From Trichomonas vaginalis G3 (lineage: Eukaryota > Parabasalia > Trichomonadida > Trichomonadidae): a stretch of DNA of 64,000 bases. The position numbers and the translations under genes are program-made. Of the stretch, positions 37,204-61,630 are shown piece by piece; positions within the stretch are counted from its first letter, which is position 1; every line of letters starts with the position of its first letter. Where the stretch lies: the NCBI RefSeq assembly GCF_026262505.1, contig NC_067208.1, positions 4,349,962 through 4,413,961 on the forward strand, in the 5' to 3' direction. The notes under the pieces were generated by a model, which worked only from the letters and a program-made list of their open reading frames with translations, was not told where the DNA came from and made no database searches.

Positions 37204-37226
37204 AAACCGTTTTTACTTCACTTAAA

Positions 37227-40431: not shown

Positions 40432-40447
40432 ATCCAACTATTCTATA

Positions 40448-40463
40448 TTTTTACTCATATGAA
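40448..40463 (+). promoter_or_regulatory. TTTTTACTCATATGAA start-proximal box
   Basis: Directly before the capsid ATG. It is similar to TTTTTACTGAGATGAA before the genes starting at 55,031 and 55,206 (minus). Confidence 0.5.
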
Positions 40464-42074: not shown

Positions 42075-42387
42075 GTTGTTCTTGAACTGACTTCTCTCCG
42101 TCAAATATTGACAGTACGCCAGTTTTGACATAAAATTGTATTAAAAACTTTCCTTTAGAAATATCGGTCAGTTTTGTTGTTATATTTTTGTCTGCTTCAA
42201 GAACTTTCACCATCTCGGTTATACCAACTTTCTTTGCTTTATGAAAATATTTTGGTTCAGCAAAGACTGCTATTCTATAACATTTTCCATTGTTTGTGTA
42301 AAGAACTATTCTGTCAATGTATTTGTATTGTTTGTGTGTGTAAACTTTGTTCTGCTTCAATTCGAAGAGATACTCAAATACGTCCAT
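41968..42387 (-). CDS. Maverick protein of about 139 residues, unknown
   Basis: Starts MDVFEYLFELKQ. It is mixed alpha/beta with a basic middle, and no domain was recognised. The last 35 residues overlap the capsid 3' end in antisense, so the real stop may lie earlier if a base is missing. It is divergent from the next gene with only 17 bases between the two starts (TTTTATTCTAAGTAAA), forming a shared bidirectional start region. Confidence 0.6.
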   Translation of the reverse strand: MDVFEYLFELKQNKVYTHKQYKYIDRIVLYTNNGKCYRIAVFAEPKYFHKAKKVGITEMVKVLEADKNITTKLTDISKGKFLIQFYVKTGVLSIFDGEKSVQEQLTDLLPKSARWKLSLYQSEEPQQVSSNESSKEHLP

Positions 42388-42404
42388 CTTTTATTCTAAG
42401 TAAA

Positions 42405-42985
42405 ATGTCATTTCCGAAAAATAGAAGCGTAAGTGTTTCAAAAGGTTTAATGGCGGTGGCAATGTGAAGTTAAATTCACCAACTCAAACAAACAGTCAAA
42501 GTGTTGTTGTCAATGTCAAAGAAAGAGATGTTGAAGTGGGGAAACCATACGAAGACGAAGATGGTATAACAATAGTTCCTGTAAAAGAACAACCAACATA
42601 TCCTGAAGGTTAGCAGAGACTTAAGTTCTGTTGCAGATATTCGAAACGACTACATGCAACTGAAAGATAAGCTTAAAACTCAGGAGAAGATTTGTCAAGC
42701 TTTGGTATAATGTTAAACTTGGTCGAACACAACCCTGTAAAAGTGAACTCATATGTCATCGCACCTCATGAAATTTTGAAAGAACTATTGAAACTTTTGA
42801 CAGAGGCAGACGATATAAACATCAAAGAAATAGAACCCGACATTGCTTGCTGTGGTGTTTCATATAATGTCATTGACAAGATATACGTTATGAAAGGAGG
42901 TGAAACGTTGAACTTAAAATATAGTTTCCCAGACGTTATAAAAATATTTGACGACCACAACATTTCATTAAAATTTAGTTGCTAA
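42405..42985 (+). pseudogene. Maverick protein of about 190 residues, frameshifted, unknown
   Basis: Starts MSFPKNRSVSVSKG. Pieces in different frames: a basic start, V-V-V-N-V-K-E-R-D-V-E-V-G-K-P-Y, an acidic stretch (E-D-E-D-G-I-T), a helical piece, and the C-terminal part to N-I-S-L-K-F-S-C at 42,985. At least three frame changes. No family recognised. Confidence 0.5.
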
Positions 42986-42989
42986 GTAA

Positions 42990-43786
42990 ATGGCAGAAGA
43001 CATAGTGGTTTATACTATTACGACTAAAAACCCTGAGTCATATAATTCTATAACAACAAACTTACAAAGTCCTCAAGGACGATATTGTAAACTAACCTTA
43101 AACACAATGACGACTAAGCCTGTTTTGCTCTTTTGACACCAGAAGACTTTGTTGTTGTGAATGGTAAAAAATACTTCTTTGAAGATACTTACTCAGATAT
43201 ACCACCAACAGGTTTTGTTGACTTATTTAATACTTTAAGGACGGATGTAACATGTGCTGCAACTAGAGCAGGTTTCATTATGTTTGGATGTCCGACTGAG
43301 TTTAGTATAAACGATATGAGCTATAATACAAAACTTATATCTGGTTTTTACTACCAAACAGTTTCCTATAACAGGAAAAGGTGTCATACAAGGTCTATCT
43401 ATTCCATTGACTTTAATACACCTATTTTATATATTGTTTCAAACTTAGGTTCAAAGTGCTATTCGAATGTCGACAGAAACTACTATGACCAAAAGATACT
43501 TATGCGTATAAACAACACTTTCTCTGCTGGTTTGCCTATTGTTCATTCGAATGCAGAATTTTCAACCTTAGTGAACTCAAACACTTTGGCAAGTATAACG
43601 TTGACATTAGTTGACGCAAACTTTGTTCCTGTAAAACTTTTATGTCCTATGTATTTGTCAATGACGGCAGAAAGTTTCGAATTGGAAGATGCAACTGGTG
43701 AAAGTATTGTACTACAAGAACAACTTCAACAACAAATAGCTCAAGAACAACAAATGCAACAAATGGAACAACAAAGTCAAGAATAA
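42990..43786 (+). pseudogene. Penton-like minor capsid protein candidate
   Basis: Starts MAEDIVVYTITTKN directly after TTGCTAAGTAA. One frame change near 43,125 leads into a 217-residue piece ending in a Q-rich tail. About 260 residues in total, beta-rich, with S-I-T-L-T-L-V-D-A-N-F-V-P-V-K-L-L near the C-terminus, as in single-jelly-roll minor capsid proteins of Polintons (strand plus 'new/other feature' loop). It lies just behind the capsid gene region, as expected for a penton protein. The Q-rich tail is unusual. Confidence 0.55.
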
Positions 43787-43800
43787 AAAAAATATTTTTT

Positions 43801-43815
43801 TTTATTTTTATAAAA
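43801..43815 (+). promoter_or_regulatory. TTTATTTTTATAAAA box shared with the polymerase gene
   Basis: The 18 bases TTTATTTTTATAAAAATG, including the start codon, are identical to those before the DNA polymerase (54,413-54,430, minus). It suggests joint control of replication genes. Confidence 0.5.
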
Positions 43816-45050
43816 ATGTACAGAATAGACGTTTCAGATTTTTATGACTTCCAAGCATTCAGAAATATGTGTCCATTTCGAGACTATAACAAAGCAGTCG
43901 AGAATTTGAAACGTTTAGTCATTTATGTCGACTCTGCCCCAGAATGTTATGTTATGAAAGAATGGGATGTTGTCTTTAACAAACCAAGAGCAACAATAGT
44001 TTCAGAACAAGAATGTAGACAAAAACTTAAGAAAATAAAAGTCGTACAAGTTGGTATGAAGATGTTAGATGCTTGGGATATTTTATTGTCAAAGTTAGAA
44101 GATTTTTCAGTTCGAGTAATAAAGTTTATACACCTTCTCCAAACTTCTATTCTATCTTCACTGGATATAAATATGAACAAGTAGAATGGAAAGAAAATGT
44201 TATAAAGCTTGTTAGACCATGTCAAAGAAATTATATGCAATGGAAACGAAAGAGTCTATGAGTATATCTTATGTTGGTTTGCAAACATCTTACAACATCC
44301 AAGTGCTAAAAATGAAACTGCTCTCATTATAATTGGAAAACAAGGAACAGGTAAGAATACTTTCTTTACAGATATTTTGTGCAAACTGTTAGAGGGCTAT
44401 TCGAACCCGAATATGACAAACTTAGAAAACATCTGCGGTAAATTTAACTCTTCAATAGAGAATATGAAACTTATAGTTTGCAATGAACTTCAAAGTATAG
44501 ATACAACAAAATTTTAAACTCAGATGCTTTGAAGAGTCTTATAACAGACAAAGTTGGAGTTGTTGAAAGAAAGTATAAAGACCAAAGAGTTTGTGAAAAT
44601 GTTTGCAAACTTCATTATGGTTTCAAACAATTCTGTTCCGATGAAGTTAGAAAGTTCTGACAGAAGATATGTAGTTGTCAGAACGTCAGATTCTCATATG
44701 CAAGATACAGAATATTTTGACGACTTAGCAGAAAACTTTGACATCTGACTTTTACAACCACTTGTTCTCATATTTTATGACATTAGATATTTCAAAGTTC
44801 AATCCAAGACAAATTCCACATACCGAAGAGAGACAAACATTGTTAGAAGCAAACAAGAGTGATATATGAACTGTTCATAGATGAAACTGACTTTGAGTGT
44901 TTAGATGAAAGGTCATTGTACGATTCGTATAAACAATATTGTCAAGAATATGGTTATATGACAGCGTCTAAACGAACATTCTTGGCAAATGTCAAAAGTC
45001 TTTTAGACGTACAGAATGGTGTATATACAAAGAAAAATTTTTATGAGTAA
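43816..45050 (+). pseudogene. SF3-type replicative helicase, frameshifted
   Basis: Open pieces at 43,816-44,184, 44,209-44,517, 44,554-44,748 and 44,859-45,050 give about 410 residues. Visible motifs: Walker A G-K-Q-G-T-G-K-N-T-F-F, Walker B-like L-I-V-C-N-E-L, motif C/arginine-finger region I-M-V-S-N-N-S-V-P and D-R-R-Y-V-V-V-R. The last piece resembles the winged helical end of D5-like helicases. SF3 helicases of DNA viruses form hexamers that unwind the template. No primase domain is evident in the first 120 residues. The upstream box equals that of the DNA polymerase. Four frame changes. Confidence 0.8.
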
Positions 45051-45114
45051 ATTTTAAAAAAATATTTTTATCCGATAGAAAAGATGACGAAAATTCATCT
45101 CAGTAAATAAGTAC

Positions 45115-45503
45115 ATGACAGAAGTCAAAGAAGAACTAGACCCATTCGCTTATTTGAATGTTACTTCTACCATTTTGAAAAGTCTACATTTGACAAAGTT
45201 TGGAACATCGAACCAGTTAAAGTTTGCTATTGTGACTAAAAATGGTGCGAAATTTGAAGACTTAGAATAGAAGGTTTGTTAGCAGTCAAGAAAATTTTGA
45301 CAGAAGGTTTCTCAAACCTTTAAAGAAGGCAAAGCATACAAACTTGTTATACCTTATGAACCAAAGAAAGCAGACGACTATGAATATTATGAGTCTAAGA
45401 TAGTTGAAGTTCAAGGTAAGTTGGGTAAAAAGATTTTAGAGTCTAAGCCAGTGTTTGCTCTAAAGAGGAAGAGAACATTGACATTGACCCAGAAATGTTC
45501 TAA
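45115..45503 (+). pseudogene. Maverick protein of about 128 residues, frameshifted, unknown
   Basis: Starts MTEVKEELDPFAYLNV. Frame changes near 45,265, 45,320 and 45,460; the end reads D-I-D-P-E-M-F. The middle has G-K-A-Y-K-L-V-I-P-Y. The small size and beta-like middle could fit a nucleic-acid-binding protein, but nothing was recognised. Confidence 0.5.
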
Positions 45504-45526
45504 AAATAAAATTTTATTTTTACATG

Positions 45527-45970
45527 TCAAATTTCTTTTTCTTCTGGTTCAGGTTCTTTCTTCTCTTCTTCTACTTTCTTTCTTTCTCTTTCTCTCTTCT
45601 TCTTCTTTTCTGGTGGAGTTATGTCAAATTTCTCCGAACCATATTTATGTAAAAGTTCTTTGTCCTTTAATAGCTCTTCTATTCTGTTTTCTATTTCATC
45701 TTCAAGAACAGCGCATGTGCCTTCTTTGCATTCTAAGAACTTTTGTTGGACTTCATCTTTCCAATCGGCGTCATCTCTGTCAACAAGTCTGTCATTGACA
45801 AATTTTAAGACTGCTCTTTGTAATGTTTTATGGTTCTTGTCATATTCCCAGAAACAGAACTTTAGAACAAATTCCCCTTTCTTGTTTACACTATGTAAGA
45901 TTTTATGGTCGACAGATGTTTTGCTGTCGAAAAGCTTGTCTCGAATATAGATAGCGAAATCGCTAGACAT
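45527..45970 (-). CDS. Maverick protein of 147 residues with charged coiled tail
   Basis: Start taken at ATG 45,970 (MSSDFAIYIRDK). It has an intact frame. The N-terminal 100 residues are globular (V-L-K-F-C-F-W-E-Y-D, W-K-D-E-V-Q-Q-K-F), and the last 40 are a K/E/R/P-rich tail. No domain recognised. It is convergent with the preceding gene and divergent from the ATPase gene (36 bases between starts). Confidence 0.65.
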   Translation of the reverse strand: MSSDFAIYIRDKLFDSKTSVDHKILHSVNKKGEFVLKFCFWEYDKNHKTLQRAVLKFVNDRLVDRDDADWKDEVQQKFLECKEGTCAVLEDEIENRIEELLKDKELLHKYGSEKFDITPPEKKKKRERERKKVEEEKKEPEPEEKEI

Positions 45971-46006
45971 TTTCAAAAAGATAAAAATTTTAATTTTTCT
46001 AAAAAT

Positions 46007-46864
46007 ATGTTAGAAAAAAAGTTTGCTGACATTGACAAGAAATTTGAGAATGTTTTTGAAGAAGACAAGAGGAAGTTAGAAAATGCTCAGATAAAACCTA
46101 TACATGACAAGTTCTTATTGCTCAGAATGGTATAACAGGTCTAATTGCACCACCTGGGTCGGGTAAGACTTTCACTTATCTTAAAATGGCTGCACAACAA
46201 CAAGAACTAGATGAGAAGAACCCATTCTATGAGTTAGTAGTCATTTGTAGTACTTCTGGTCAATTTGACCAAACCGTAAATTCGTTCAAAGATATTATAA
46301 AAAGTCTAAGTTAGTATGTATAAAAAGACTCTGAGTTGTTAGATTGGATAAAGAAGTACCAAAGAAGAGTTTTGAAGTACAATGCTATAAATGAGTATGT
46401 CAATTCGAAGTTTAAAGACCCAAATGAGGAAATGCAGAGAATATTAGAGAAGAAACACTTCAGAAACAAACAGAAAGAGATAGAATACATTTCGAAGAAA
46501 TTTGCAATCTTACGATTGGAAGACTTACCCTCACAGATGTCTTCTTATCTTAGATGATTTCGCCTCTCATCCTTTGTTAAAGAACAGAGAACAAGATATG
46601 TGTCGAATTCTTAAGAAGCTCAGACACTTCAACATCTCAGTTGTCATTGTGTACAGACAGCAAAGAGTTAAGTAAGGATGTTAAAAGAATACTTACTGAT
46701 ATCATACTTTTCCCTGGATTGTCCGAAGACGATTTCATGGAACTTATGAAAGAGTCCATGGCAGGTAAGTTTGACAGACATGAACTATGGGAGAGTACAA
46801 AGTCATACAAGACCCTCATATTCTTTCAGAATTCACATCTACGCAAACAAAGTTCAAATTGTAA
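46007..46864 (+). pseudogene. A32/FtsK-like genome-packaging ATPase, frameshifted
   Basis: Starts MLEKKFADIDKKFE. Walker A is G-L-I-A-P-P-G-S-G-K-T-F (about 46,140-46,175, in a second frame). Walker B is L-L-I-L-D-D-F-A (about 46,545), followed by R-H-F-N-I-S-V-V-I-V as in the sensor region of A32-like ATPases. The end reads T-Q-T-K-F-K-L at 46,864. About 285 residues, with frame changes near 46,120, 46,310, 46,540 and 46,650. These ATPases pump the genome into capsids of Polintons, virophages and large DNA viruses. Confidence 0.82.
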
Positions 46865-46969
46865 AAAGTCAAGCTTGAAAAATAAAGAGTTTAGTCTTAG
46901 TCTGTGTGGTTCTGCAGCTTTCGGTTCTTCTGGCTTTGGAATGGACTCGGTTGGTGGTACGTCGGACAT
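46826..46969 (-). pseudogene. Short MSDVPP frame at the edge of repeat array 1
   Basis: 47 residues, MSDVPPTESIPKPEEPKAAE then a basic stretch; proline/glutamate-rich. It begins exactly at the left edge of the array and runs into the ATPase 3' end. The same MSDVPP start is found at the left edge of array 2 (51,475), there without its body. It is probably the truncated 5' end of a gene. Confidence 0.45.
46868..46886 (+). repeat. 19-bp direct repeat flanking array 1, left
   Basis: GTCAAGCTTGAAAAATAAA, repeated at about 47,474-47,492. It contains the palindrome TCAAGCTTGA. Confidence 0.6.
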
Positions 46970-46971
46970 TG

Positions 46972-47408
46972 TCTTGAAACAATAAAAGACTTGTCTTGAA
47001 AAAGTAAAAGACTTGTCTTGAAAAAGTAAAAGACTTGTCTTGAAAAAGTAAAAGACTTGTCTTGAAAAAGTAAAAGACTTGTCTTGAAAAAGTAAAAGAC
47101 TTGTCTTGAAAAAGTAAAAGACTTGTCTTGAAAAAGTGAAAGGACTTGTCTTGAAAAAGTACGGGTATCGTCTGAAATCAAGACCACTGTTCTCAAATTT
47201 GAGAACTTTACACCAAAAAATTTCTTGAAAAATAACGGGTCTTGTCTTGAAAAAGTAAAAGACTTGTCTTGAAAAAGTAAAAGACTTGTCTTGAAAAAGT
47301 AAAAGACTTGTCTTGAAAAAGTAAAAGACTTGTCTTGAAAAAGTAAAAGATTTGTCTTGAAACAATAAAAGACTTGTCTTGAAAAAGTAAAAGACTTGTC
47401 TTGAAACA
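46972..47408. repeat. 22-bp tandem repeat array 1
   Basis: About 15 units of AAAAGACTTGTCTTGAAAAAGT in two blocks separated by a unique spacer (about 47,157-47,240, containing TATCGTCTGAAATC and TTCTCAAATTTGAG). Each unit holds the palindrome AAGACTTGTCTT. The array lies between two outward starts, MSDVPP (minus) and MTDIDPADEAIY (plus). All frames across it are open because of the unit sequence; it is not taken as coding. Confidence 0.85.
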
Positions 47409-47603
47409 ATGACCGACATAGACCCAGCAGATGAGGCAATTTACATTATAGAGCTACCTGAGCCATCTTTGGTGTCAAGCTTGAAAAATAAATGGTTCAT
47501 CTACTCTACTTGTTTGAAGTTGTCAAAATACTCTGTTATTTTTTCTTTCAGTAGCGGTAAGTCTTCTTTGAAGGTAAGTATTGTACAACCTTTCATATCA
47601 TAG
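47409..47603 (+). pseudogene. Truncated DEAIY gene at the edge of array 1
   Basis: MTDIDPADEAIYIIELPEPS matches the start of the gene at 51,833 (MVEVEPTDEAIYLIEI). After about 22 residues it enters the direct repeat and then the antisense of the neighbouring KilA-N gene, so only the gene start is present. Confidence 0.55.
47474..47492 (+). repeat. 19-bp direct repeat flanking array 1, right
   Basis: Second copy of GTCAAGCTTGAAAAATAAA, 606 bp to the right of the first. Confidence 0.6.
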
Positions 47604-48312
47604 TGTGTTTGAGGTAACGTATCTTGAACTATTTGTTTCACATCTTCATTCGGTGTCATTGAAATCGGTAAGTTTTCGCGATAGAACCAATTTCTGTCAG
47701 ATTTGTAAATCTTAGCAAGGTCGTAAAAGCTTTTGTTGTTTCTTCTGACTAAATGCAAATAACCATATCTCTGTCTTCTTCATTTTCCATCTCTTCAGTG
47801 TAAATCATATACTTATAGTTCTTTTCCTTTCCTTTTGGTACCGAACGTGGTATTCTTTTCTGTATGGTTTTGTCTTTTGCTTCAAGCTTGTTCTCTAGCT
47901 CTTCACGTTCTTGTCTATGAATTTCGTCTAACATCATGAAAATATAACAAGCGTAACGAGGTGAAGCCCACATTGCTACAGCATTTACTAAAAGTCTATG
48001 AACATACCAACCTCTCAAACCATTTGGCAAATTTTGACGATTTTCGTACGGAATCTCGACCCTCGGTTTTCCGAGGGTCGCAAACATATGAGGAAATTCT
48101 TCTAAAAGTTCTTTTGTCTGTTGGTTTTCAAACCAATGGTATGCTTGCTTTGTAGAACGAAGAGCATTCAAAAATACTTTGCATTTGGTACATATCGTAT
48201 CGTCTTGACCGAACGAATGAGACGGAGTTGTTTTGTTAAACTGTATGTACTCGTATTCTTCATTTATAGCTTCATGGACTATAACTGTTGTTGTGTTCTC
48301 TGTTGTTGACAT
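47501..48312 (-). pseudogene. KilA-N domain protein with C-terminal extension, frameshifted
   Basis: Start taken at MSTTENTTTV (48,312), preceded by the TGTAAGGACAGAT box. The KilA-N DNA-binding core shows L-R-G-W-Y-V-H-R-L-L-V-N-A-V-A-M-W-A-S-P-R. The charged linker ends near 47,755, where one frame change leads to an 85-residue C-terminal domain (L-H-L-V-R-R-N-N ... Y-F-D-N-F-K-Q) similar in position to the extra domains of viral KilA-N proteins. About 270 residues. KilA-N proteins are common in DNA viruses and phages, probably as DNA-binding regulators. Confidence 0.78.
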
Positions 48313-48327
48313 ATCTGTCCTTACATA
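48313..48327 (-). promoter_or_regulatory. TATGTAAGGACAGAT start-proximal box
   Basis: Nearly the same box lies before the starts at 49,007 (TATGTAAGAACAGAA), 51,423 (ATTGTAAGAACAGAA) and 50,463 (ATTGTAAGAAC). Confidence 0.55.
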
Positions 48328-48400
48328 CAAAATAAAAAATAAAAAAAAATAAAAATTAGCGTTATTTTCTATCTTGTATAAAAGACCAAAAATAAACGCT

Positions 48401-49007
48401 TTACATGTATTTTTCAGCAACTTCGTCAAATAATTTTATAGCTTTATCTATCTCATCTACTTCAAACGTTTCCTTACCTTTCGTGGAGCACCATACATTT
48501 TCTCAAACTTTTCAAGTAGTTCTGTTTCTGCAGCTCTCATATCATTAACAAACACAACCTTGACTCTATTGACTGTACTGTCATATCTTTGAGTTATATT
48601 ATATGTTCTTCCTATCTTATATCTCTTTGTATTGAAGTCCTTCGGTTTCTGAACGATGTAAAGTAAGCCTTCACTGCAACGTTCTGAGTCGAATAAACCA
48701 TATGTTATGAAATTATATCCAACAACTGGGTCTAACCATAACAAAACTATTGTATAAGACTTTTGTCTATAAGATATGCTGTAGTTCCATAGAATCTTAC
48801 CGATATCATAAGCTCAGGATTTCTTGTCAAAATTTTCTGAGTAGAAGCAATTCTAACCAGTCGTGGTTTCTTTCCAGATGGAGATATAATGTCTGACAAA
48901 GAATATTTGTTGTATTTCTTTGAGTATCTTACGTTTAAATCACCTATTCTAACCAATTTGGTGTCATTGTCTATCTTTTTAACTGTTTCAAACTCAATGT
49001 TTAACAT
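48401..49007 (-). pseudogene. T5orf172/GIY-YIG-like protein, frameshifted
   Basis: Start MLNIEFETVKKID at 49,007. The N-terminal 85 residues resemble a small DNA-binding module (D-L-N-V-R-Y-S-K-K-Y). After a frame change near 48,760, the C-terminal part has G-L-L-Y-I-V-Q-K-P ... Y-K-I-G-R-T-Y-N-I-T-Q-R-Y, the GIY-YIG-type pattern of the T5orf172 domain that often accompanies KilA-N or Bro domains. Another change near 48,475 gives the end A-E-K-Y-M at 48,401. About 200 residues. Confidence 0.7.
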
Positions 49008-49022
49008 TTCTGTTCTTACATA
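49008..49022 (-). promoter_or_regulatory. TATGTAAGAACAGAA start-proximal box
   Basis: Member of the KilA-N-cluster box set, directly before the ATG. Confidence 0.55.
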
Positions 49023-49154
49023 CAAAATAAAAAAAATATTTTATAAAAAACTAACTTTATTTTTATTTTGTATAAAAGATATGATTTCATAGAGTTTTTT
49101 TCACGAAGTGCAAAAGTTCACTTCGTCAAAAAAATACAGTTATATAATGAAATT

Positions 49155-49250
49155 TGGTCATTTTTTCACGATTTTCATGAGTTTTAGGCGACCAGGTTTT
49201 TTTCCCTACTCGCAATTTTTTACGATTTTCATGAGTTTTAGGCGAGTAAG
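49155..49250. repeat. Duplicated ACGATTTTCATGAGTTTTAG segment
   Basis: Two copies about 60 bp apart, each followed by GCGA. It lies in the gap between minus-strand genes. Confidence 0.6.
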
Positions 49251-49304
49251 ATTTTCTATCTTGTATAACAGTTATATAATGAAAAAGTGTCATTTTTTTC
49301 AGCA

Positions 49305-49542
49305 AAAATATATTTTAGGGTAGAAGGGTATATCTACCCCGTTTTCTACCCTCATTTCTACCCTCTTGAATTTTCATGATTTCATCGTACATGTTTTGTC
49401 AAGACTTCTTCGTAAATGTTTTGTCAAGACTTCTTCGTAAATGTTTTGTCAAGACTTCTTCGTAATGAGCGTAAATCAGACAAAAATATATTTTAGGGTA
49501 GAAGGGTATATCTACCCCGTTTTCTACCCTCTTTTCTACCCC
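49305..49542. repeat. Internal copy of terminal-repeat subrepeats
   Basis: Two AAAATATATTTTAGGGTAGA segments with CTACCCCGTTTTCTACCC variants flank three GTTTTGTCAAGACTTCTTCG repeats. These are the same units that make up the terminal inverted repeats. Confidence 0.75.
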
Positions 49543-49549
49543 AGTTATT

Positions 49550-50463
49550 TTATAAGCGTTTTACATGGTAAACATTGTGAATTCGTGAAATTCTAAACAA
49601 TTTCGTAGCTTCTATTTCTTCTGTCAGTACATCGAATGTTTTAACAATGCCGAAAGTTTCTTTATACTTCTTCTTGACGTCAGATAGAAGGAAATCTTCT
49701 GCTGTTGGATAGTTTTTGTTCAGAAATGTCAACATGTCCATTTTATCTTCTGCTGGTTTCTCTACTTCTTTCTTTAAGTCAGCATAGTCGTTTCTCATAC
49801 GTTCTATCTCTTTGACGGAGTAGTTATATTTCCTCATTGCTGCTTTACATTTAGAACATTGCGGGTTCATTTTTGCGTTATATTCTGAAACCTTACCTGC
49901 TAGTATGACTAAGGCGTCAATTGCTCTCTTTAACTCAAAAGTTGCGGGTTTTATCTGTTCATTCCATATCTTACCTCTTCTATCTTTATCTCTTATCTGC
50001 CATACACATTTTGCAACTAACGAAACAAAGTTATCGTAGGTCTTAAATTCTTCAGATTTGTATATGTCAGAGATGTTCTTATATACCATATCGCAATCTT
50101 TGTCCATGACTTTGTGGTTGCAATGAAATCCAAGAAACTCATAGTTTACCTTTCGTATGAACTTCTTTATTTCTACTGAGTCAGTTGCTTTGACTTCTAT
50201 TTCATCGAATTCTGAATAGTGAGTTTTTGTTGTTGGATTTCAGGAAGTTTAGGTAGATGGTCAATAATATCCTGCATTTCATAAAGATACTGTTCATTTG
50301 TTTCATCTTTCGCACTACAGTTTAGATCTCCTTGGAGAAGTTCTTGCTTTATCTTCTGGATTTCTGTTTCGAAAGTATATGAAGAAGGAATGAAGCTTTT
50401 CATCTCTACTAACATTGAAGTTGGGTTCATGACTAACGAGTTTGGTGCTGTTGTTGCTAACAT
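49550..50463 (-). pseudogene. Maverick protein of about 304 residues, one frameshift, unknown
   Basis: Start MLATTAPNSLVMNP at 50,463 behind TTGTAAGAAC. A frame change near 50,225 joins the first 80 residues to a segment with F-L-G-F-H-C-N-H-K and then the 185-residue piece beginning M-D-K-D-C-D-M-V. The latter has C-S-K-C-K within a helical region, probably too few cysteines for a zinc finger. It is helical and charged overall. It lies between KilA-N genes and has the same start box, so it is probably part of the same regulatory class. Confidence 0.55.
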
Positions 50464-50474
50464 GTTCTTACAAT
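50464..50474 (-). promoter_or_regulatory. ATTGTAAGAAC start-proximal box
   Basis: Shortened member of the KilA-N-cluster box set, directly before the ATG. Confidence 0.45.
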
Positions 50475-50525
50475 AAAAATAAAAAAATATTTTTTTAAAA
50501 AAACCAACTTTATTTCTATCTTAAG

Positions 50526-50740
50526 GAAATTCATGAAAATTCAAGAGTTTTGTGTGTTTTCTACGAGGGTAGAAAAGAGGGTAGAAAACGGGGTAGATAT
50601 ACCCTTCTACCCTAAAATATATTTTTATTGAATTCAGCAACAAAATTCAAGAGTTTTGTGTGTTTTCTACGAGGGTAGAAAAGAGGGTAGAAAACGGGGT
50701 AGATATACCCTTCTACCCTAAAATATATTTTGTGCTGAAT
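50526..50740. repeat. Second internal copy of terminal-repeat subrepeats
   Basis: Two units of GAGGGTAGAAAAGAGGGTAG...TACCCTAAAATATATTTT in the opposite orientation to 49,305-49,542, with AGAGTTTTGTGTGTTTTCTA between them. The two internal blocks thus form an inverted pair around the gene at 49,550-50,463. Confidence 0.75.
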
Positions 50741-50762
50741 TCAATAAAAATAAATGGTTCAT

Positions 50763-51423
50763 TTACTCACAATATTTTTGTACAAAACAACCCCAAGCTT
50801 TTAACCTCTCTTCTGCAGCTTCTAATGCTATCTTAGCGAGTTCATATTCTCTAAATTCTCTCTTTAAATCTTCTTGTTCCCATTGGTCTAGTTCGTATGG
50901 CGAGTCTCTATAACCAGAACATATCTCACGTTCATGTTCTATTTGTTTTTCATGCATTTTTCTAACTTCTTCTTCAAACAAAGGTTTTGCATTCTCTACT
51001 GTATCTTCAAGTTCTTCTTCATCTAACTTCTCATGAACTTTCTTGTCTATGGAGTCCATAATTTTTCCAACTGCTATGCAATATTTTGGAGAAGCCCACA
51101 TTGCTATATAGTTTAGAAGTCTTGGGTCTACATACGTTCCTCTAACCTGTTTGATTTCATCAGGAATTCCTGCATGAACTTTGTATAAAAAGCAACCGCC
51201 GTTTTCCCGGGTTGGTATATTCTTCACAAAATGCCTCAAAATACTCTTCCCAGGACTTATTTTCCAACAACCTTCTAAAGTCTTTCCTAAACTGCTGACA
51301 CATCTTTGTTGCATTTATATAACCATCCTTGTCTCTACGTAAGACTTCAATACCGTTGTAAGTGCCTTTTGTGAATGTTTCGCCATTAGATTTGTTCGTG
51401 AACGTTTTTGCTTCGACTGACAT
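50763..51423 (-). pseudogene. KilA-N domain protein, frameshifted
   Basis: Start MSVEAKTFTNKSNGE. The first piece has G-I-E-V-L-R-R-D-K-D-G-Y-I-N-A-T-K-M-C, the hallmark N-terminal half of KilA-N. One frame change near 51,215 leads to V-R-G-T-Y-V-D-P-R-L-L-N-Y-I-A-M-W-A-S-P, the second half, then a long charged helix and C-terminal W-G-C-F-V. About 220 residues. Preceded by the TTGTAAGAACAGAA box. Confidence 0.85.
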
Positions 51424-51438
51424 TTCTGTTCTTACAAT
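51424..51438 (-). promoter_or_regulatory. ATTGTAAGAACAGAA start-proximal box
   Basis: Member of the KilA-N-cluster box set. It lies between this gene and the MSDVPP edge of repeat array 2. Confidence 0.55.
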
Positions 51439-51475
51439 AAAAATAAAAAATATTTTTTGGTGGGACGTCGGACAT

Positions 51476-51832
51476 TCGTTTGTGGCTTAACCGTCGGACC
51501 ACAACGATAAAAATCTCTGCTCCTAGCAGTACTGCTACTGACAGTAGCAGTACTTTTTCTGACAGTAGCAGTACTTTTACTGACAGTAGCAGTACTTTTT
51601 CTGACAGTAGCAGTACTTTTTCTGACAGTAGCAGTACTTTTTCTGACAGTAGCAGTACTTTATCGTCGAAAACCCTCTCAAATTTTCCTTTTTACTGCTC
51701 GTAGCAGTACTTTTACTGCTCGTAGCAGTACTTTTACTGACAGTAGCAGTACTTTTACTGACAGTAGCAGTACTTTTTCTGACAGTAGCAGTACTTTTTC
51801 TGACAGTAGCAGTACTTTTACTGACAGTAGCA
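51476..51832. repeat. 21-bp tandem repeat array 2
   Basis: About 13 units of GACAGTAGCAGTACTTTTACT and a few TGCTCGTAGCAGTACTTTTAC variants, in two blocks around a unique spacer (51,663-51,695, TCGTCGAAAACCCTCTCAAA). Units contain AGTACT and can pair as CAGTA/TACTG. Left edge: MSDVPP on the minus strand with GGTGGGACGTCGGACATT. Right edge: the ATG of the DEAIY gene. The layout is the same as in array 1, the repeat unit is different. Confidence 0.85.
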
Positions 51833-52199
51833 ATGGTCGAGGTCGAACCTACCGACGAGGCAATTTACCTAATTGAAATTAACGAGCTTGTTAAAAGACT
51901 TCCTCAGGCAGAATGTAAAAGGCAAGCTTGTTAACTGTTGGATAACGGGAAGGGCTGCCTTGAATCTCGAGACTTCGACTGGAATTCCAATTCAAATACC
52001 AGACGGGACAGCCTACGACGACATAAAGCAAGCAAAGAAGGAAGCTCTTCTCAAGTTCTTTGCCAAGCGTCCTTGGATACGACTTCCAAACAGAGAGAAC
52101 CCTTTCCCAAGAATGAGCCAAATTCTCAAGGGTCTCCTTCACTTCTCGGGTCAGCCGTTCTACATAACCTGTGAAGGCGACATCCAACCAGTTCAGTAA
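51833..52199 (+). pseudogene. DEAIY gene, about 121 residues, one frameshift, unknown
   Basis: Starts MVEVEPTDEAIYLIEINELV. A frame change near 51,920 leads to G-K-L-V-N-C-W-I-T-G-R-A-A-L-N-L and on to C-E-G-D-I-Q-P-V-Q. The C-terminal half is basic and aromatic (F-F-A-K-R-P-W-I-R-L-P-N-R). It is more GC-rich than its neighbours. No family recognised. A truncated relative of its start is at 47,409. Array 2 lies directly upstream and is likely to be its control region. Confidence 0.6.
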
Positions 52200-52259
52200 A
52201 CATCTCATTTTAACTTACTTTTTTTATGTTTTTTGTGAAAGTGTCAAAAATAAATTGTT

Positions 52260-54415
52260 TTATTTCATGCAATGTTTTATTTCTGTGCCGTCTTCAAGTA
52301 TGCCCCAGTACTTACGCTTGGAGAGAACATGAACTTCGGAAAATACCTTGTCTAGCTTAAAACAGCCCATCTTTTCACCGACCATGCCCATTTCAATGAG
52401 TTTGTTATAGCCTTCTTCGTTCGTCATGAGTGCGTCAATGTTCTCATAGTAAACCACAACTTTGGATTTGACTTCGGAGAAGAATTTGTTGTAGTTGTCA
52501 AGGACTGCCTTTGCGAACTGAGGGTAAGACCAATGTTCGACAATAGGTTTTAATGTGGTTACTAAGCCACTTTGACCTTGAGTGAATTCGTACTTCAAAA
52601 CAAAAGGAGAAAACCTTTCAACAAAGTTGTCGACCTTCTCATAATGTTTACTCTTCATCTCTTGAGGTTTTTTAATGGAATACCCCCATGTCGAATTCAT
52701 AAGCAATTTGAGTGTCATTGCAAGTTTGGGGTTTGAAGCTTTCCTAATATCATACAGTTGTTGTATGACTTTTCCAACTGTATAGTTCCTTCCCGAGAAC
52801 TCACCATCTTCGTTTGGAATTCCAGTCGGAATATATTGGACAAACCTCATGTATGCAGCGTTAAGGTCGACATAGTATATCTTTTCATCTGAGTCGAACT
52901 TATCGCATCCAATCGGACCAGTTTTTGGAAATTCAAGCGAGTCTCTTATCTTCTGAGAAACTTCTCCTGTTATCTCATAAACATCGTCAAAGCAACCTGT
53001 TTCATATAAAATCTTCTGACCTAACTCTGATGCTCTCCAATACAATTTGACGTCGATTGGATGTCTCAATGGAAGTTTGTTTATAGCATCTTGAAGTTCT
53101 TGCAACCTCATTGGAAGTTCTTCTGGTTCAGGTTGGTATCCGAACAATCCAACTCCTTTTGGAATTGTGTACTTCTTTTGTACTAGAACTTTGTCTGGAA
53201 CAACTTTTGGTCTTGCTAACAGTGAAAAGTTTGTTTCGTCTTTTGGTACAAAAGTTTCTGTCAGCTTGTCATCTGGAATTGGTTCCAACAAACCTTTCTC
53301 GAAAAGAATGTTTACAGCTCTGACAATGTTGCACTTGCCTTTTCCGAACAATGGGTTTGTAAGACTTTCGTTCAACATGAAGTGGTTGTGGACAATTGCA
53401 ATCTTCAACCATGGTAAGTCTTTGTCAACAACATAGTCGTCATGTGAAGAAAACCTTTAGCTGTAGGTATGTTGACTCGGATATTGACATTTGCCAACGG
53501 TGCAATTTTTGCCAATTGACCTCTGAGAATGTACCTTGTCTTCACACATGACTCAAGATACTTCATCTTCTCATCTGTAACAAGACCAGAGTTCCTGAGA
53601 CATGTAAGAATACAAGGTTCATTGACAATTGTTTCAATTGAATTGTAAATTCCATACCTTGTCAAGTCAATGTCAGACTTATTTATGAAGGGGAAGTATC
53701 CAGCATGTTGTCTGACTGCTTGAGGGTTAGGTTGGTACCATTCGAACTTCACGCTTACAATTCCTTCAATTGCATTCAAAATATCTGAGTCGGAGTCAAC
53801 CATTTGTTCTCTCTTTGTAGTCTTGAAAGCGTCAAGAAGCATTGCAGCTGTTGTGACATTGCCATGTGCATAGTAAATATGACCGTCCAAATCTGTTACG
53901 GTTAGTCTGAGATTGTATCCTTTCTTATTTCCGTCTTGAATGGCAGCAAGTACTCCCATGAAGCCTTCTTTGTTCTTTCCTTCGTCAAAGTTTACTGTAA
54001 AGGTTCGACCAGATGTAATTTGACTTCTAACTTCACGATACTTTTCATATGCATATCTTGTTCTTTCCATGGGAGCATGTTTGTCTTCACCTTTTCCTTT
54101 TTTCCTTCTCAAAGGATGCAACTGTTCGTTATGTTTCCAGTAGAACCTGGCAAAGCCGTCGTGTCCTTCAACCTGCGGCTCACTAACATCGAAAGGCAAG
54201 TTCATAAGACGTTCTTCTTCTAATCTCTCTAATCTGTTTGGATAGTTGGTTCGCGCTGTTTTTAAGTCCATCTCATAGGTCAGACCAGCCAGTTTGTCAT
54301 AGACTTTTATGGGTCTTCCCTTCCTATATTTAAAATTCTTTGAAACTCTCCAACCATATCTTTCTAACTCTGCTTTTATTCTAGCAGACCTTCTGTCCAT
54401 TCTATATGGGGGCAT
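52260..54415 (-). pseudogene. Protein-primed-type family B DNA polymerase, compact, frameshifted
   Basis: Start MPPYRMDRRSARIKAELE. The first 336-residue piece (54,415-53,405) has no recognised domain except a conserved Polinton-like stretch near its end. After one frame change near 53,450, the second piece (to 52,260) carries motif A D-L-N-A-A-Y-M-R-F, motif B L-K-L-L-M-N-S-T-W-G-Y, a motif C position Y-Y-E-N-I-D-A-L, and K-R-K-Y-W. About 715 residues, short for Maverick polymerases. No Exo I-III motifs are evident, only about 50 residues separate motifs A and B, and the first Asp of motif C is Asn. It would replicate the element if active. Confidence 0.82.
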
Positions 54416-54432
54416 TTTTATAAAAATAAAAA
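54416..54432 (-). promoter_or_regulatory. TTTATTTTTATAAAA box before the polymerase gene
   Basis: Same 18-base stretch, start codon included, as before the SF3 helicase (43,801-43,818). Confidence 0.5.
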
Positions 54433-54446
54433 AATATTTTTTTTCT

Positions 54447-55031
54447 TTACTTTACGTAACCACCTGCTACCAAAAGCCTTTGACGCCAACCCATACCAGC
54501 TAATGAAGGTTGACTTGGTTTAGTTTGGAAACTAAACTTTGGTTTTGGTTTATCTTCAGTTTTTGGTTTCTCTTCTTCTATCGGTTTTTCGTCACTTTTT
54601 GGTTCCTCTGACTTTACCTCACCTGCAGGTATGGTTGTGTCGTCAACATCTTCGTAAATATCATATGCCATTTGTTTTTGTTTTCCTTTCAACTTTTTGT
54701 GTTTGTTGTAAAGTTTAGAATATTTCGACTCTAAGTCAATGAGATGTTCTATAATGAACTGTTGGTCAGTGAAGAATACCTTCCCATCTGTTGTCTCATA
54801 AACTCCTTCAGACTTCAATATTTTATTTGTGAGAGTCTGTTTCTTTTTTGAGATACTAGCCGTTCCATTTCTATGAAAAGTGACTTTGTAGTTAGGGTTT
54901 GCATTTCCAGACCTGGCACTTTCTATTATTGAATTTTTTTCTTCATCTGTAAGTTCTTTGACAGGTTTTGACAATGGTTCTGAACTTTTTGTTTGTGGTG
55001 TCAAATCTACCGTTTCAACTTCTTCCGTCAT
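54447..55031 (-). CDS. Maverick protein of 194 residues, unknown
   Basis: Intact. Starts MTEEVETVDLTPQTK with an acidic, disordered N-terminus. A small basic segment (Y-K-V-T-F-H-R-N-G-T-A-S-I) and a coiled helix (about 85-115) follow, then an E/K/P-rich stretch and a short hydrophobic end G-W-R-Q-R-L-L-V-A-G-G-Y. It belongs to the group with the ACTGAGATGAA start box, together with the capsid gene. It may be a virion component; no family recognised. Confidence 0.6.
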   Translation of the reverse strand: MTEEVETVDLTPQTKSSEPLSKPVKELTDEEKNSIIESARSGNANPNYKVTFHRNGTASISKKKQTLTNKILKSEGVYETTDGKVFFTDQQFIIEHLIDLESKYSKLYNKHKKLKGKQKQMAYDIYEDVDDTTIPAGEVKSEEPKSDEKPIEEEKPKTEDKPKPKFSFQTKPSQPSLAGMGWRQRLLVAGGYVK

Positions 55032-55047
55032 TTCATCTCAGTAAAAA
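55032..55047 (-). promoter_or_regulatory. TTTTTACTGAGATGAA start-proximal box
   Basis: Directly before the ATG at 55,031. The same 16 bases lie before 55,206, and a near match lies before the capsid gene. Confidence 0.55.
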
Positions 55048-55050
55048 ATT

Positions 55051-55206
55051 TTAGTTTGGTTTGTTTTCAACTGGTTGTTGTTGTTTTTTAAGTCGGTCTA
55101 AAACTTCTTGAGGTATAGGAAGAACTTGACAAACACGTGGTTGTGTAACTGCTGGAAGCCGACAAATCCATCTTGAGCCCATTTGTCTCAATGCTGTATT
55201 GTTCAT
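55051..55206 (-). CDS. Small Maverick protein of 51 residues
   Basis: Starts MNNTALRQMGSRWICRLPAV and ends in a Q-rich, basic tail. It is supported by the TTTTTACTGAGATGAA box directly before its ATG and by its tight fit between neighbouring genes (19 bases on either side). No family recognised. Confidence 0.5.
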   Translation of the reverse strand: MNNTALRQMGSRWICRLPAVTQPRVCQVLPIPQEVLDRLKKQQQPVENKPN

Positions 55207-55222
55207 TTCATCTCAGTAAAAA
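55207..55222 (-). promoter_or_regulatory. TTTTTACTGAGATGAA start-proximal box
   Basis: Directly before the ATG at 55,206, identical to the box at 55,032-55,047. Confidence 0.55.
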
Positions 55223-55225
55223 AAT

Positions 55226-55627
55226 TTACATTCCCCACGTTTGAGGCGGTTGCGGTTGGTTGTTGTTTACCCACTGTTGTGCATGGTTATATCCTCTGTT
55301 AAAGAATCTTTCACCTTGGTCCATATAGTGTCCTGCTTGGTTATAGTAGTCATTTGCTTTGTTATAATAGTTTCCTGCTTGTCTTCCTACATTGTCCATC
55401 CATCCTTGAACTTTTCCTCTTGTTTCAGGATTTGGAATAAGATTTGCTGCATCTCGTGCTACCTCCCAACCTTTCTGTACAGTTTGTATAATAGGTTGTG
55501 CTTTCTCTTTCAGTATACCTAATGTACTCAAAATCTTCCTTCCAATTCCAAATGCACCTCTGGCTATTGTTCCCACTGCGGGTAAAAATCTAGATGCAAC
55601 TCCTGCTAACGCGCCAAATAAACCCAT
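55226..55627 (-). CDS. PX-like small amphipathic protein, 133 residues
   Basis: Intact. Starts MGLFGALAGVASRFLPAVGT, an amphipathic Gly/Ala-rich helix, followed by a basic segment, a Y/N/Q-rich region with Y-Y-N-K-A-N-D-Y-Y-N-Q-A repeats and a P/Q-rich end. The architecture (amphipathic start, repeats, P/Q tail) is shared with the protein at 58,763. Small amphipathic proteins of Polintons and adenoviruses are minor capsid components acting on membranes; a similar role is inference. Confidence 0.6.
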   Translation of the reverse strand: MGLFGALAGVASRFLPAVGTIARGAFGIGRKILSTLGILKEKAQPIIQTVQKGWEVARDAANLIPNPETRGKVQGWMDNVGRQAGNYYNKANDYYNQAGHYMDQGERFFNRGYNHAQQWVNNNQPQPPQTWGM

Positions 55628-55645
55628 TTCTTATGGGTTAAAAAA

Positions 55646-56604
55646 TGACGAATCCAAACAAGGACCCCTATGTTTCTAAAGCGACAAAGAAAGCACTCAT
55701 GGTAAAAATCTTTAGTTCAACACCAAATGCTTGGTTTATGGATATCTTGGAAAACATTCCGAGAGTTAGACAGATGGACCACCATACTGGCTAATATTTG
55801 TCGGTCAAAACACAAGATACTGTGAAGCCATACCATTACAGTCCAAAAATATTTTAGATGTGAAAACTGCTTTGACAATATTCGTTGACAAATACCATCC
55901 AACAAAACTGACATCTGACTGTGAAAGTTCTTTCAAATCAGACGATATTAAAAACTATCTGCGTTTCAAAAAATGTAAACCAATATTTCATTGTCGACCA
56001 AAACCATTCTGCTCTTGGTGTCATTGACAGTTGTATAAAAATCTTAAGAGACTTAAATCAACCACAAGGTGGTGAAGCAAATGAAATGTCATATGACGAC
56101 AAGTACAGACACTTCTCCATGGCAAAGATGAGACAAGTTTTAAATATTTACAATAGCCGTAAACAAAAAGGTTTGGGAAACCACTCCCCCGAAGAAATGA
56201 AAAACAACCCTGACTTAGAGAAAGACTATATATTTAACAATTTAGTCAAAAGAGACAAACAAGAAAGAATGCCAGGCTTCAAACTTAAGAAAGGTGACAA
56301 AGTAAAAATAGAAATACCTAAACGCGACCCATATGAAAATACTATTGACTATGACAACAATGGGAACTCGACAGGTACTCGCATTCGTGTTCGTAAAAAT
56401 AGAAGAAAGTATACAAGAGAATATTATGAAGTTTTAGGCAAACATGGCAAAATGTACACACTGCAAGCAGAAGATAAAACTACTATTGTCAGACCTCGTT
56501 TCAAACTTGTCAAAGTTCAAGGTGGTATACTTTCAAAGACAGTTCCTAACAAATATAAGACAACTCCAGACGAATATGCTAAAGAAGTTGAAAATGACGA
56601 CTAA
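55646..56604 (+). pseudogene. Retroviral-type integrase, frameshifted
   Basis: Starts MTNPNKDPYVSKATKK, 18 bases from the divergent start of the preceding gene. The RNase-H core reads W-F-M-D-I-L (first Asp), W-L-I-F-V-G, L-T-S-D-C-E-S-S-F (second Asp), and N-H-S-A-L-G-V-I-D-S-C (third acid position, here Asp instead of Glu). The C-terminal domain has an SH3-like K-L-K-K-G-D-K-V-K-I-E-I and Y-Y-E-V-L-G-K-H-G-K-M. About 318 residues, frame changes near 55,785 and 55,985. Integrases of this kind insert Mavericks with a 5-6 bp target duplication. The 3' end overlaps the convergent fibre gene by four bases. Confidence 0.82.
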
Positions 56605-57889
56605 GCAATTCTATACCATGCGTAAACTGTCATAAATGGCGGCATGTAATCTTTACTTTGTCCCGTTGTTTGTGTATATCCGAAACGCGATGTGTATGGT
56701 TTCCATCTCCCTGAGTGTCACTCCAGTAACAATTTATAGCAAACTTAACCTCGTCTTTAACATCATATCCTTTACCTTTTGTCATTCCTGACCAATCCCA
56801 ATATCTATGCTTATGCCAACCTGCTTGAGATGTACTTAAATCTATGTAGTGACTGTGTGCAGGTAAATTTTCACCTGAAATCGTTTTACTTCCACCTGTT
56901 TCCTTTGAAGAGTTTGCACAATACAAAAACCTGTCGACTATTTGAGTCCAAGTTCCGAGACCAAGTACTACTTCTGGTCTGGTAGAGTTCATTGACGTAT
57001 AAATAGAACCTATAGGATATACTGTTTGAAGTATTTCTGTCTTTAATGTTTGAAGCTCTGTTTTGTCTGCTTTTTTATATAACTTTTCTTCAAGTTCATT
57101 TACGTCAGAGATGCTATGTCTATGATATTTTTGTGGGTATGTTCCTTCTGTCCATGCTAAAATACGTTCTTTTGTTGCATCTACATATCCAGCTATCCAT
57201 GTCGAGTCTGCTTTTGTATTCCTTAACTCTGTAACACCTTTCTCAAGCTCTTTCAACTGTTGTCCATCTTCCATTAAACCTCTGGTATGACTTGAAACCG
57301 TTTGTGTCAACATATCTACAGTTTCTTTGTCGGCTTTAAGGTCTAAACATCCTGAAACCCACCCTGTATTGGCTTTACCTTCTAAAATCTTCGATGTCCG
57401 TTCATGGTACCATTCAACCCTTTTTATAATTTCATTGTCTTTTTCATCCACATATTCCTTATCTGCCTTCTTCACTAACCCACTAGCCAGATATGCTAAC
57501 TCATCGTCAACATACTCTTTGTCAGCTTTCTTTTCAACATCCTCTTTTGTTGCATATGTTGCATCTGCTCTGTCATGTTCTTCTTGAACTTTTTCAATGA
57601 CATACTCTTTGTCAGCTTTGTTGTCAATATCTGCTTTCAAAAGAAGTTCATCTATAGGTTTCTCGTTTAAAGTTCTTTTTGTTGGATTTATACAAACAGT
57701 ATGGTTCTTGTTGTCTTGAAACAGAAACTCGTCTGTCATTGGGTTTATCGTCAGTTTTAAGTTTCCTTCTTTCAATGACTCAGATATCTTAGAATAGTTT
57801 GAAAAGTTTGTTGTGTTCTTATTTAGAGCTTGCATAATGAGTTGTCGGTTGTGTTGTATTTCTCTCATAGACGCTGTTTCATTTGACAT
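56601..57889 (-). pseudogene. Tail-fibre-like protein with phage-type C-terminal domain
   Basis: Starts MSNETASMREIQHN; about 429 residues. Residues about 80-280 contain at least five heptad-like repeats of K-A-D-K-E-Y-V-D, as in trimeric phage fibre shafts. The C-terminal domain from Y-P-I-G-S-I-Y-T-S-M-N-S-T through G-T-W, D-R-F-L-Y, G-G-S-K, L-P-A-H-S-H matches the tail-collar/fibre-tip type of phages and viruses. One frame change near 56,690 restores the diagnostic end M-T-V-Y-A-W-Y-R-I-A. Such proteins bind host surfaces in phages. It is not part of the classical Maverick core; 18 bases separate it from the next divergent gene. Confidence 0.85.
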
Positions 57890-57907
57890 TTTTATTCTAG
57901 ATAAAAT

Positions 57908-58758
57908 ATGCTTCCAATAGAAAAAGAAAATTCAAGAGTTGCTACAACTAAACCATTAGATGAACTTTTTACGAATGTCGGTCAAAAGTTTGAGACAGAG
58001 ACCGTAAAGCATGAAGGCTATCGTTTTGACTACCCATTAAGATGGCTAAGAGACCCATCTGTCACAAAAGCTATTGGCTTTCGTAGAATGAAGTTTGTGT
58101 CTGTAGAAGATAAAAGTTTTCCATTTATTGTAAGGTTTCATATAGATTATATATCTGAAGGGAAACGAAAAATGTGGGAAGAAATTGAGCTAATACAAGT
58201 TGACCTTTCATCTTCTCTACAGACTGCGTTAAAAAATATAGAAGATAAAATAAATTCATGTTATGCAAAATATGCTGATGAATATGCAAATACCGAGAGC
58301 ACACTTTATGTGAGAATTTGTATATGACAAACAAAATTCACAAGTGTCATTTCAAATCTACGAAGACAATCCAAAAGAAAGACGAACAAATATATACAGA
58401 ATTCACTGCAATGTCATGGTATTATTTGCAAAGAATGTTAAATCAGAAAGTCGAACTTCCTTTAGCAAATATTTACAGTCGATATGCAAGAGATGAACCA
58501 TATTTATTTAAAGATGTTTTCGACCCAGCTGCTATTATTGTTCATGCTTCATTTTCTGGCGCCCAAAACTCTTTCTTATGCTTGGCAAATGACTTTTACG
58601 AAAAACCTACAAAGTTATACGAACCACCAAGTGGAAGTATTTCAGACTTTCAAGTATGGTTTACTACAGATGGAAGAAAAAGAATAATTCCATTATACCA
58701 TGCGTTTTACTTAGAACTTAGTTTCATATACAACTACTATCGAACGGTAAAAATATAA
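57908..58758 (+). pseudogene. Maverick protein of about 283 residues, one frameshift, unknown
   Basis: Starts MLPIEKENSRVATTK. A frame change near 58,318 joins two pieces into one protein that ends F-Y-L-E-L-S-F-I-Y-N-Y-Y-R-T-V-K-I. Beta-rich and aromatic, with R-W-L-R-D-P and V-W-F-T-T-D-G-R-K. It lies between the fibre and PX-like genes, and its last bases are where the truncated Maverick at 6161 begins. A minor virion protein is plausible; no family recognised. Confidence 0.55.
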
Positions 58759-58762
58759 TTTT

Positions 58763-59005: not shown

Positions 59006-59023
59006 TTTACTATATGTAAAAAT

Positions 59024-59385: not shown

Positions 59386-59408
59386 TTAATATTAGATAAA
59401 AATATCTC

Positions 59409-59540: not shown

Positions 59541-59547
59541 TTACTTA

Positions 59548-60342: not shown

Positions 60343-60378
60343 TTTATATATATAATAAAAATGTTTTTTCCTGAAAAG

Positions 60379-61595: not shown

Positions 61596-61630
<35 letters not shown>

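What the first reader, a model, noticed from the sequence alone, without database searches (positions are those of the whole stretch)
46868..52199. Two repeat arrays with homologous edges but unrelated repeat units
Array 1 (46,972-47,408; 22-bp unit) and array 2 (51,476-51,832; 21-bp unit) share the left edge GGTGG(T/G)ACGTCGGACATT, which encodes MSDVPP outward on the minus strand. They share the right edge, an ATG of a D-E-A-I-Y protein on the plus strand. Both are split in two blocks by a unique spacer with TCGTC, GAAA and CTCAAA. The units themselves (AAAAGACTTGTCTTGAAAAAGT; GACAGTAGCAGTACTTTTAC) are unrelated, but both contain small palindromes. This suggests one functional locus, such as a bidirectional promoter, replication origin or partition site, whose repeats are replaced or evolve quickly while the frame is kept.
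Basis: partly seen in the sequence, partly recalled or inferred. Interest (0 to 1): 0.8.

Follow-up and report, generated by a model that had tools for sequence, protein, structure and literature searches.

The report
Swappable repeat cassette in Trichomonas Mavericks
Giant virus-like transposons of a human parasite carry, between two diverging genes, a block of short DNA repeats that comes in at least five old versions, each mostly matched to its own version of the neighbouring small protein, which looks like a set of specificity labels that the elements trade among themselves.

Summary
The window lies in Trichomonas vaginalis, inside a Maverick (about 36140-61616). The shared edges are start codons of two diverging genes: L (about 193 aa, proline-rich) and R (121-124 aa; no relative found outside T. 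vaginalis, no fold match). The left edge has 1178 exact copies genome-wide, its reversed control 0. The array between them occurs in at least five types: 21-22 bp units in two blocks around one core (core counts A 104, B 371, C 1122, E 211; D seen in 3 loci). Array 2 is type B at the main site. Array 1 is type A at a second site with remnants of L and R. R codons 1-45 agree with array type in 83 of 87 main loci (Fst about 0.9); L is much less associated (0.16-0.52). R types are old and under purifying selection. At the second site, where R is dead, 7 of 7 C arrays sit on A-type R remnants. Best reading: R, or a complex with R, binds its own array and controls the gene pair, perhaps also copying or segregation. 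Binding and function are untested.

The parts
36140..61616 (.). Maverick element bounded by terminal inverted repeats
   Evidence: Inverted arms 36140-36508/61248-61616 and 36589-37203/60379-60993, 100% complementary; DUF4106, DUF3839, KilA-N, T5orf172 and DUF5906/VapE-like hits inside
46869..46886 (+). 18-bp direct repeat left of the second-site array
   Evidence: Read; a near-identical tail follows the upstream gene in 5 fetched loci that are main sites
46826..46969 (-). L' remnant (starts like L, then diverges; 47 aa) beside array 1; left edge 46953-46970
   Evidence: intact L is about 193 aa in e.g. L020, L003
46971..47408 (.). Array 1, type A, 22-bp units in two blocks
47162..47239 (.). 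Core spacer of array 1; perfect palindrome GTTCTCAAATTTGAGAAC at 47189-47206
   Evidence: core pattern 104 times genome-wide, control 0
47409..47474 (+). R' remnant (MTDIDPADEAIY, then an A-type piece of R with part missing)
47475..47492 (+). 18-bp direct repeat right of the second-site array
51459..51476 (-). L start edge at array 2; after its first six codons the upstream region of a KilA-N gene follows instead of L
51477..51832 (.). Array 2, type B, 21-bp units in two blocks; an inverted repeat with 12-bp arms stands at its left end
   Evidence: near copies in at least 39 other places (40 of 1223 candidates scored)
51660..51694 (.). Core spacer of array 2 (TATCGTC...CTCTCAAATTTTCC)
   Evidence: core pattern 371 times genome-wide, control 0
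51833..52199 (+). R gene, type B; frame-shifted after about 21 codons in this copy
   Evidence: intact 121-aa copies elsewhere
50763..51423 (-). KilA-N gene in two overlapping frames, now next to array 2
   Evidence: Pfam KilA-N 6e-12 and 1e-10

Best explanation
The array is the shared upstream region of a divergent gene pair and forms one exchangeable cassette with the N-terminal third of R. Shown: (1) L-array-R is a recurrent unit of T. vaginalis Mavericks. (2) At least five array types share one plan: 21-22 bp units (about two turns of the helix), two blocks of variable copy number, one conserved core with a CTCAA-type motif, dyad-like in A, D, E and (differently) C, half of it in B. (3) Array type goes with codons 1-45 of R and much less with L. 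(4) The R types are old and under purifying selection. (5) A second array site exists in some elements, with dead L and R. Inferred: R, or a complex with R, binds one unit per two helical turns, its variable N-terminal segment reading the unit. The bound array folds around the core and sets transcription of L and R, possibly also replication or segregation of excised copies. The types then act as specificity groups that keep related elements from answering to each other's protein. The second-site arrays would be extra binding sites or decoys for other groups.
For: R DNA codons 1-45: Fst by array type 0.83-0.93, dropping to 0.45-0.77 further 3'; L 1-135 0.22 in the same 75 loci. In 26 loci not chosen by R similarity: R 1-135 0.89, L 1-135 0.52. 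Array and R variable region agree in 83 of 87; the 4 exceptions are all B arrays with a C-like variable region, the related pair. Genome-wide lists: of 75 E-variable places 41 had a listed core, all E; of 100 B-variable places 32 did, 30 B and 2 C. 6 of 21 E loci carry A-like (1) or B-like (5) first codons yet keep both E array and E variable region. Internal control: all 7 C arrays without a full R among L039-L068 lie on A-type R remnants. pN/pS between types 0.10 in the conserved start, 0.74 in the variable part, 0.30 in the C-terminal part (85 loci). Periods 22, 21, 22, 21, 22; core found in 99 of 103 arrays. Related arrays (A/D/E; B/C) have on average the more similar variable regions.
Against: No binding data. 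No R relative was found outside T. vaginalis and no fold match, so DNA binding is not shown. The variable segment starts about 55 bases from the array, so linkage explains part of the association; R types may be too diverged to cross over freely, while L is not. L is not free of association: nearest-neighbour agreement with array type is 0.67 (75 loci) and 0.84 (26 loci), and L 1-135 exceeds shuffled labels in both sets; some L windows reach 0.56-0.67. B arrays carry C-like variable regions in 4 of 30 main loci; one of them (L126) has E-like first codons as well. Some R proteins join a C start to a B variable region, one an E start to a B one, arrays unseen. C and E variable regions (0.41) are as alike as A and D. 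The second-site mismatch may descend from one or few events. Of 38,656 Maverick and mariner ORFs only 25 passed the expression threshold (PMC7845603).
Confidence: 0.45

Rival explanations
1. Divergent promoter/enhancer bound by host factors; array and R type travel together only because they are adjacent and too diverged to recombine.
For: Arrays run up to the R ATG and close to the L ATG, and other genes of the element have different upstream motifs by eye. Association falls with distance inside R. B/C hybrids exist. L shows some association too.
Against: L is similarly close to the array but much less associated. E loci with foreign first codons keep E on both sides. At the dead second site the link is broken.
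Confidence: 0.3
2. Iteron-like replication origin: R or the element's helicase binds the units and melts the core.
For: Iteron-like spacing and two blocks around a unique core. A DUF5906/VapE-like helicase-type frame lies in the element.
Against: The published annotation lists a viral-type DNA polymerase B for these elements; protein-primed copying from the terminal repeats (recalled) would need no internal origin. No initiator-like fold match for R.
Confidence: 0.15
3. Neutral minisatellites that happen to sit between two genes.
For: Copy number varies widely (B 2-11 and 2-12 units, E 4-20 and 2-14).
Against: Same period class in all five types and a core in 99 of 103 arrays. Core patterns recur 104-1122 times, controls 0; exact matches were 93 of 104 for A and at least 100 of 371, 1122 and 211 for B, C, E, whose lists are capped.
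Confidence: 0.04

Closest known systems
Type II plasmid partition site parC with ParR (plasmid R1)
   Same: Tandem repeats split in two regions with the promoter in the middle, upstream of the operon; ParR binds one repeat per dimer and represses the promoter (PMC5016525, passages)
   Different: Eukaryotic element; 21-22 bp units; divergent pair; no actin-like motor gene seen next to it; R matches no known fold here
Clostridium perfringens ParMRC families
   Same: Closely related replicons carry about ten diverged families; ParR binds parC of its own family and not of another, which is taken to set compatibility (PMC9426499, abstract)
   Different: Specificity was measured there; here it is inferred from co-inheritance
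Phage lambda ori/iteron-based inhibition (IP)
   Same: Plasmid copies of an iteron-bearing origin piece can silence a related phage's replication (PMC3349717, abstract), as second-site arrays might
   Different: Bacterial; needs the oop transcript; nothing of the kind was tested here
T. vaginalis initiator, M3 and M5 promoters
   Same: Host promoter elements (PMC7946386, passages)
   Different: No initiator-like TCA motif seen by eye next to the L or R ATG in the window (motif recalled)

Membership tests
Maverick/Polinton of T. vaginalis | Long element with terminal inverted repeats and Maverick genes | tested here: met
   a KilA-N protein and DNA polymerase B are listed among Maverick genes in PMC7845603
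Type II partition system (parMRC) | Repeat array in two blocks upstream of the binding-protein gene | tested here: met
   Array plan and adjacency to R: (that R binds it is not shown)
Type II partition system (parMRC) | ParR-like ribbon-helix-helix protein | tested here: inconclusive
   AlphaFold2 model mainly helical, pLDDT 81; no fold match
Type II partition system (parMRC) | Actin-like motor gene next to the site | tested here: inconclusive
   L has no Pfam hit at E<=1; not every ORF of the element was scanned
Iteron replication origin | Helically phased direct repeats with an adjacent melting region | tested here: inconclusive
   21-22 bp spacing met; melting not tested
Iteron replication origin | Replication starts there | not testable with these tools
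   none
Repressor/operator immunity cassette | Regulator and operators co-inherited as diverged types among otherwise recombining elements | tested here: met
   Array and R N-terminal part co-inherited, L much less; that R is a regulator is not shown
Repressor/operator immunity cassette | Regulator binds its own operators only | not testable with these tools
   none

The most novel reading that the evidence does not exclude
Mavericks of one genome are divided into at least five specificity groups, each defined by a cognate pair of a new small DNA-binding protein (R) and its helically phased site array. This would be a eukaryotic counterpart of plasmid incompatibility or phage immunity groups, and the second-site arrays would be captured sites of other groups that act as decoys or shields: in 25 of 25 core pairs 1.5-8 kb apart among the listed cores the upstream array was A or C, and in 19 of these 25 the downstream one was B or E.
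Probability: 0.25. Interest if true: 0.88.

Novelty: new variant of a known kind. Interest (0 to 1): 0.64.

Why it matters
About 4,800 Mavericks are annotated in one T. vaginalis genome (PMC7845603), and how related elements in one cell interfere with each other is open. A typed, exchangeable array/protein cassette would make that testable: it predicts which elements respond to which protein. It also gives a census marker for element groups, shows exchange of non-coding repeats by recombination at conserved edges, and offers a new protein family with a predicted target.

Tried and rejected

Limits. Scored genome hits are lower bounds. R loci were partly chosen by R similarity. From 109 rows, 87 main loci remained after dropping 21 with R shorter than 90 aa and one duplicate (L049). 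Many windows of the L alignment gave no value because of gaps. One search used 400 listed cores of 1808 counted; its pairs are taken as one element each by distance alone, and three (1.6, 1.6 and 7.5 kb) are doubtful. One search used 100 of 233 B-variable and 75 of 115 E-variable places; 68 and 34 of these had no listed core. The search looked for the A-type remnant itself; the 7 C arrays are all those without a full R among L039-L068, so none of these 7 was missed, but L065-L067 look alike and may be close copies. Coordinates were hand-copied from outputs. Literature seen: PMC7845603 section 8 and passages; PMC5016525, PMC7946386, PMC10120064 and PMC12695648 passages; PMC9426499 and PMC3349717 abstract and outline; the remaining papers only as listings.

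Full report
Setting. The window is G000:C6:4349962-4413961 of a 180.9 Mb genome in 86 contigs. The R protein search returns T. vaginalis G3 entries on contigs whose lengths equal those of C1-C5 here (C6 differs slightly), so the species is Trichomonas vaginalis; DUF4106 and DUF3839 hits fit that (recalled as Trichomonas families). The arrays lie in a Maverick with terminal inverted arms at 36140-37203 and 60379-61616. PMC7845603 lists 4,808 annotated Mavericks in this species.

Observation. Both arrays, their edges and split spacers are as described. The left edge is the start of gene L on the minus strand, the right edge the start of gene R on the plus strand. In the window both genes are damaged. 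At array 1 L ends after 47 aa and R is a remnant. At array 2 L is lost after MSDVPP and a KilA-N gene lies behind it, while R is frame-shifted. Other copies carry an intact L of about 193 aa and R of 121-124 aa.

Census. The left-edge pattern has 581 + 597 exact matches, reversed control 0. R has 1292 and 1315 first-look candidates with two queries; 150 were scored each time and all 150 matched. Core patterns with up to two mismatches: A 104, B 371, C 1122, E 211, all controls 0. Type D was seen in 3 loci and not counted genome-wide.

Anatomy. By autocorrelation the unit length is A 22, B 21, C 22, D 21, E 22. Unit numbers vary. The core motif chosen for each type is present in A 29 of 30, B 27 of 29, C 22 of 22, D 3 of 3 and E 18 of 19 arrays. 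The cores share a CTCAA-type motif; it is a full dyad in A and D, near one in E, a different dyad in C, and a half in B (motifs). The array 1 core holds the window's only perfect 18-bp palindrome that is not A/T only. Units of A, D and E look related, as do B and C; A and B are not clearly related.

Co-inheritance. From 109 candidate rows, 87 loci had R of at least 90 aa after dropping 21 short ones and one duplicate; 75 also had L. Differentiation by array type is about 0.9 over R codons 1-45, then 0.45-0.77. For L it is 0.52-0.58 in the first 60 columns and mostly 0.03-0.49 beyond, with windows of 0.56, 0.64 and 0.67 (negative in one window at the ragged end); many L windows gave no value. 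In a second alignment of the 75 loci R 1-135 gives 0.83 and L 1-135 gives 0.22. In the 26 loci not chosen by R similarity the values are 0.89 and 0.52, and nearest neighbours share the array type in 1.00 (R) and 0.84 (L). L 1-135 exceeds shuffled labels (max 0.14 and 0.21), so L is weakly associated, not free. Array and variable region agree in 83 of 87; 4 B arrays carry a C-like variable region. Genome lists agree: E-variable 41 of 41 places with a listed core, B-variable 30 B and 2 C; 34 and 68 further places had no listed core. R proteins with a C start and B variable region, and one with an E start and B variable region, also exist, arrays unseen.

Age and selection. In 85 loci, between types pN/pS is 0.10 in the 13 codons from DEAIYLIEIN (pS 0.74; 1725 of 2693 pairs saturated), 0.74 in the variable segment, 0.49 and 0.30 beyond; overall 0.41 between and 0.35 within types. 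So R is a selected protein with old types and a loosely constrained or diversifying segment near the array.

Second site. Array 1 stands for a class of arrays behind the upstream gene, with cut-down L' and R' and, in the window, an 18-bp direct repeat on either side. R' contains a piece that matches A-type R. A search for that piece in the fetched loci found 28 stretches: 20 with an A core, 7 with a C core, one with no core found. The 7 C arrays are all those without a full R among L039-L068. Three A arrays (L017, L031, L036) have C-like bases after their first codons, so exchange seems to have gone both ways. In 25 core pairs 1.5-8 kb apart among the listed cores the upstream array was A (12) or C (13), the downstream one B or E in 19. 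Five main-site loci (L003, L005, L047, L053, L062) show the upstream gene's tail in what looks like the undeleted arrangement.

Mechanism. Two blocks of helically phased sites around a core, next to a small co-inherited protein, is the plan of split partition sites such as R1 parC (PMC5016525 passages), and diverged families of such pairs are taken to set compatibility in Clostridium plasmids (PMC9426499 abstract). I therefore propose that R binds its own array and controls the divergent genes, with the types as specificity groups. Membership in that family is not claimed: no motor gene was seen next to it and R's fold is unmatched. The strongest argument beyond linkage is the contrast between main sites, where array and R agree, and dead second sites, where they do not. 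Its weakness is that the second-site mismatch may be one event copied many times, and that L, though much less, is associated too.

Verdict. Real, widespread, old and organised; mechanism inferred. Interest 0.64.

Noticed in passing
window 38123-59385: Other genes of the element show two upstream motif classes by eye: ATTTTTA...TAAAATG-like before several genes, and TTTTTATTGTAAGAACAG-like before KilA-N and neighbouring genes. They may be element-specific promoter classes.
   Followed up: no
window 13770-27128: About eight tandem copies of a 423-425 aa ORF, spacing about 1.73 kb (two copies split into shorter ORFs); the one copy tested has no Pfam hit at E<=0.1; AT dinucleotide runs recur at the same spacing.
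   Followed up: no
window 44209-44517: DUF5906/VapE-like helicase-type frame inside the Maverick; PMC7845603 lists a DNA primase domain protein in these elements.
   Followed up: no
L042, L044, L052, L082: The left edge itself is repeated in a 26-bp step beside the array.
   Followed up: no
G000:C2:13383135 (L120): An R match lies in an open frame of 1292 codons, which presumably runs back through the array: gene finders may call such array ORFs as proteins.
   Followed up: no
L059, L076, L079, L082, L085 and the window at 51459: Copies that lost L keep its first six codons next to the array, followed by an A/T-rich stretch: either a preferred breakpoint or a needed array boundary.
   Followed up: partly
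window 52260-53408: Frame that reads by eye like the end of a family B DNA polymerase, without a Pfam hit at E<=0.1.
   Followed up: no
literature: PMC10120064 says no capsid genes had been found in T. vaginalis Mavericks, while PMC7845603 annotates proteins similar to viral structural and PRD1 capsid proteins there.
   Followed up: no
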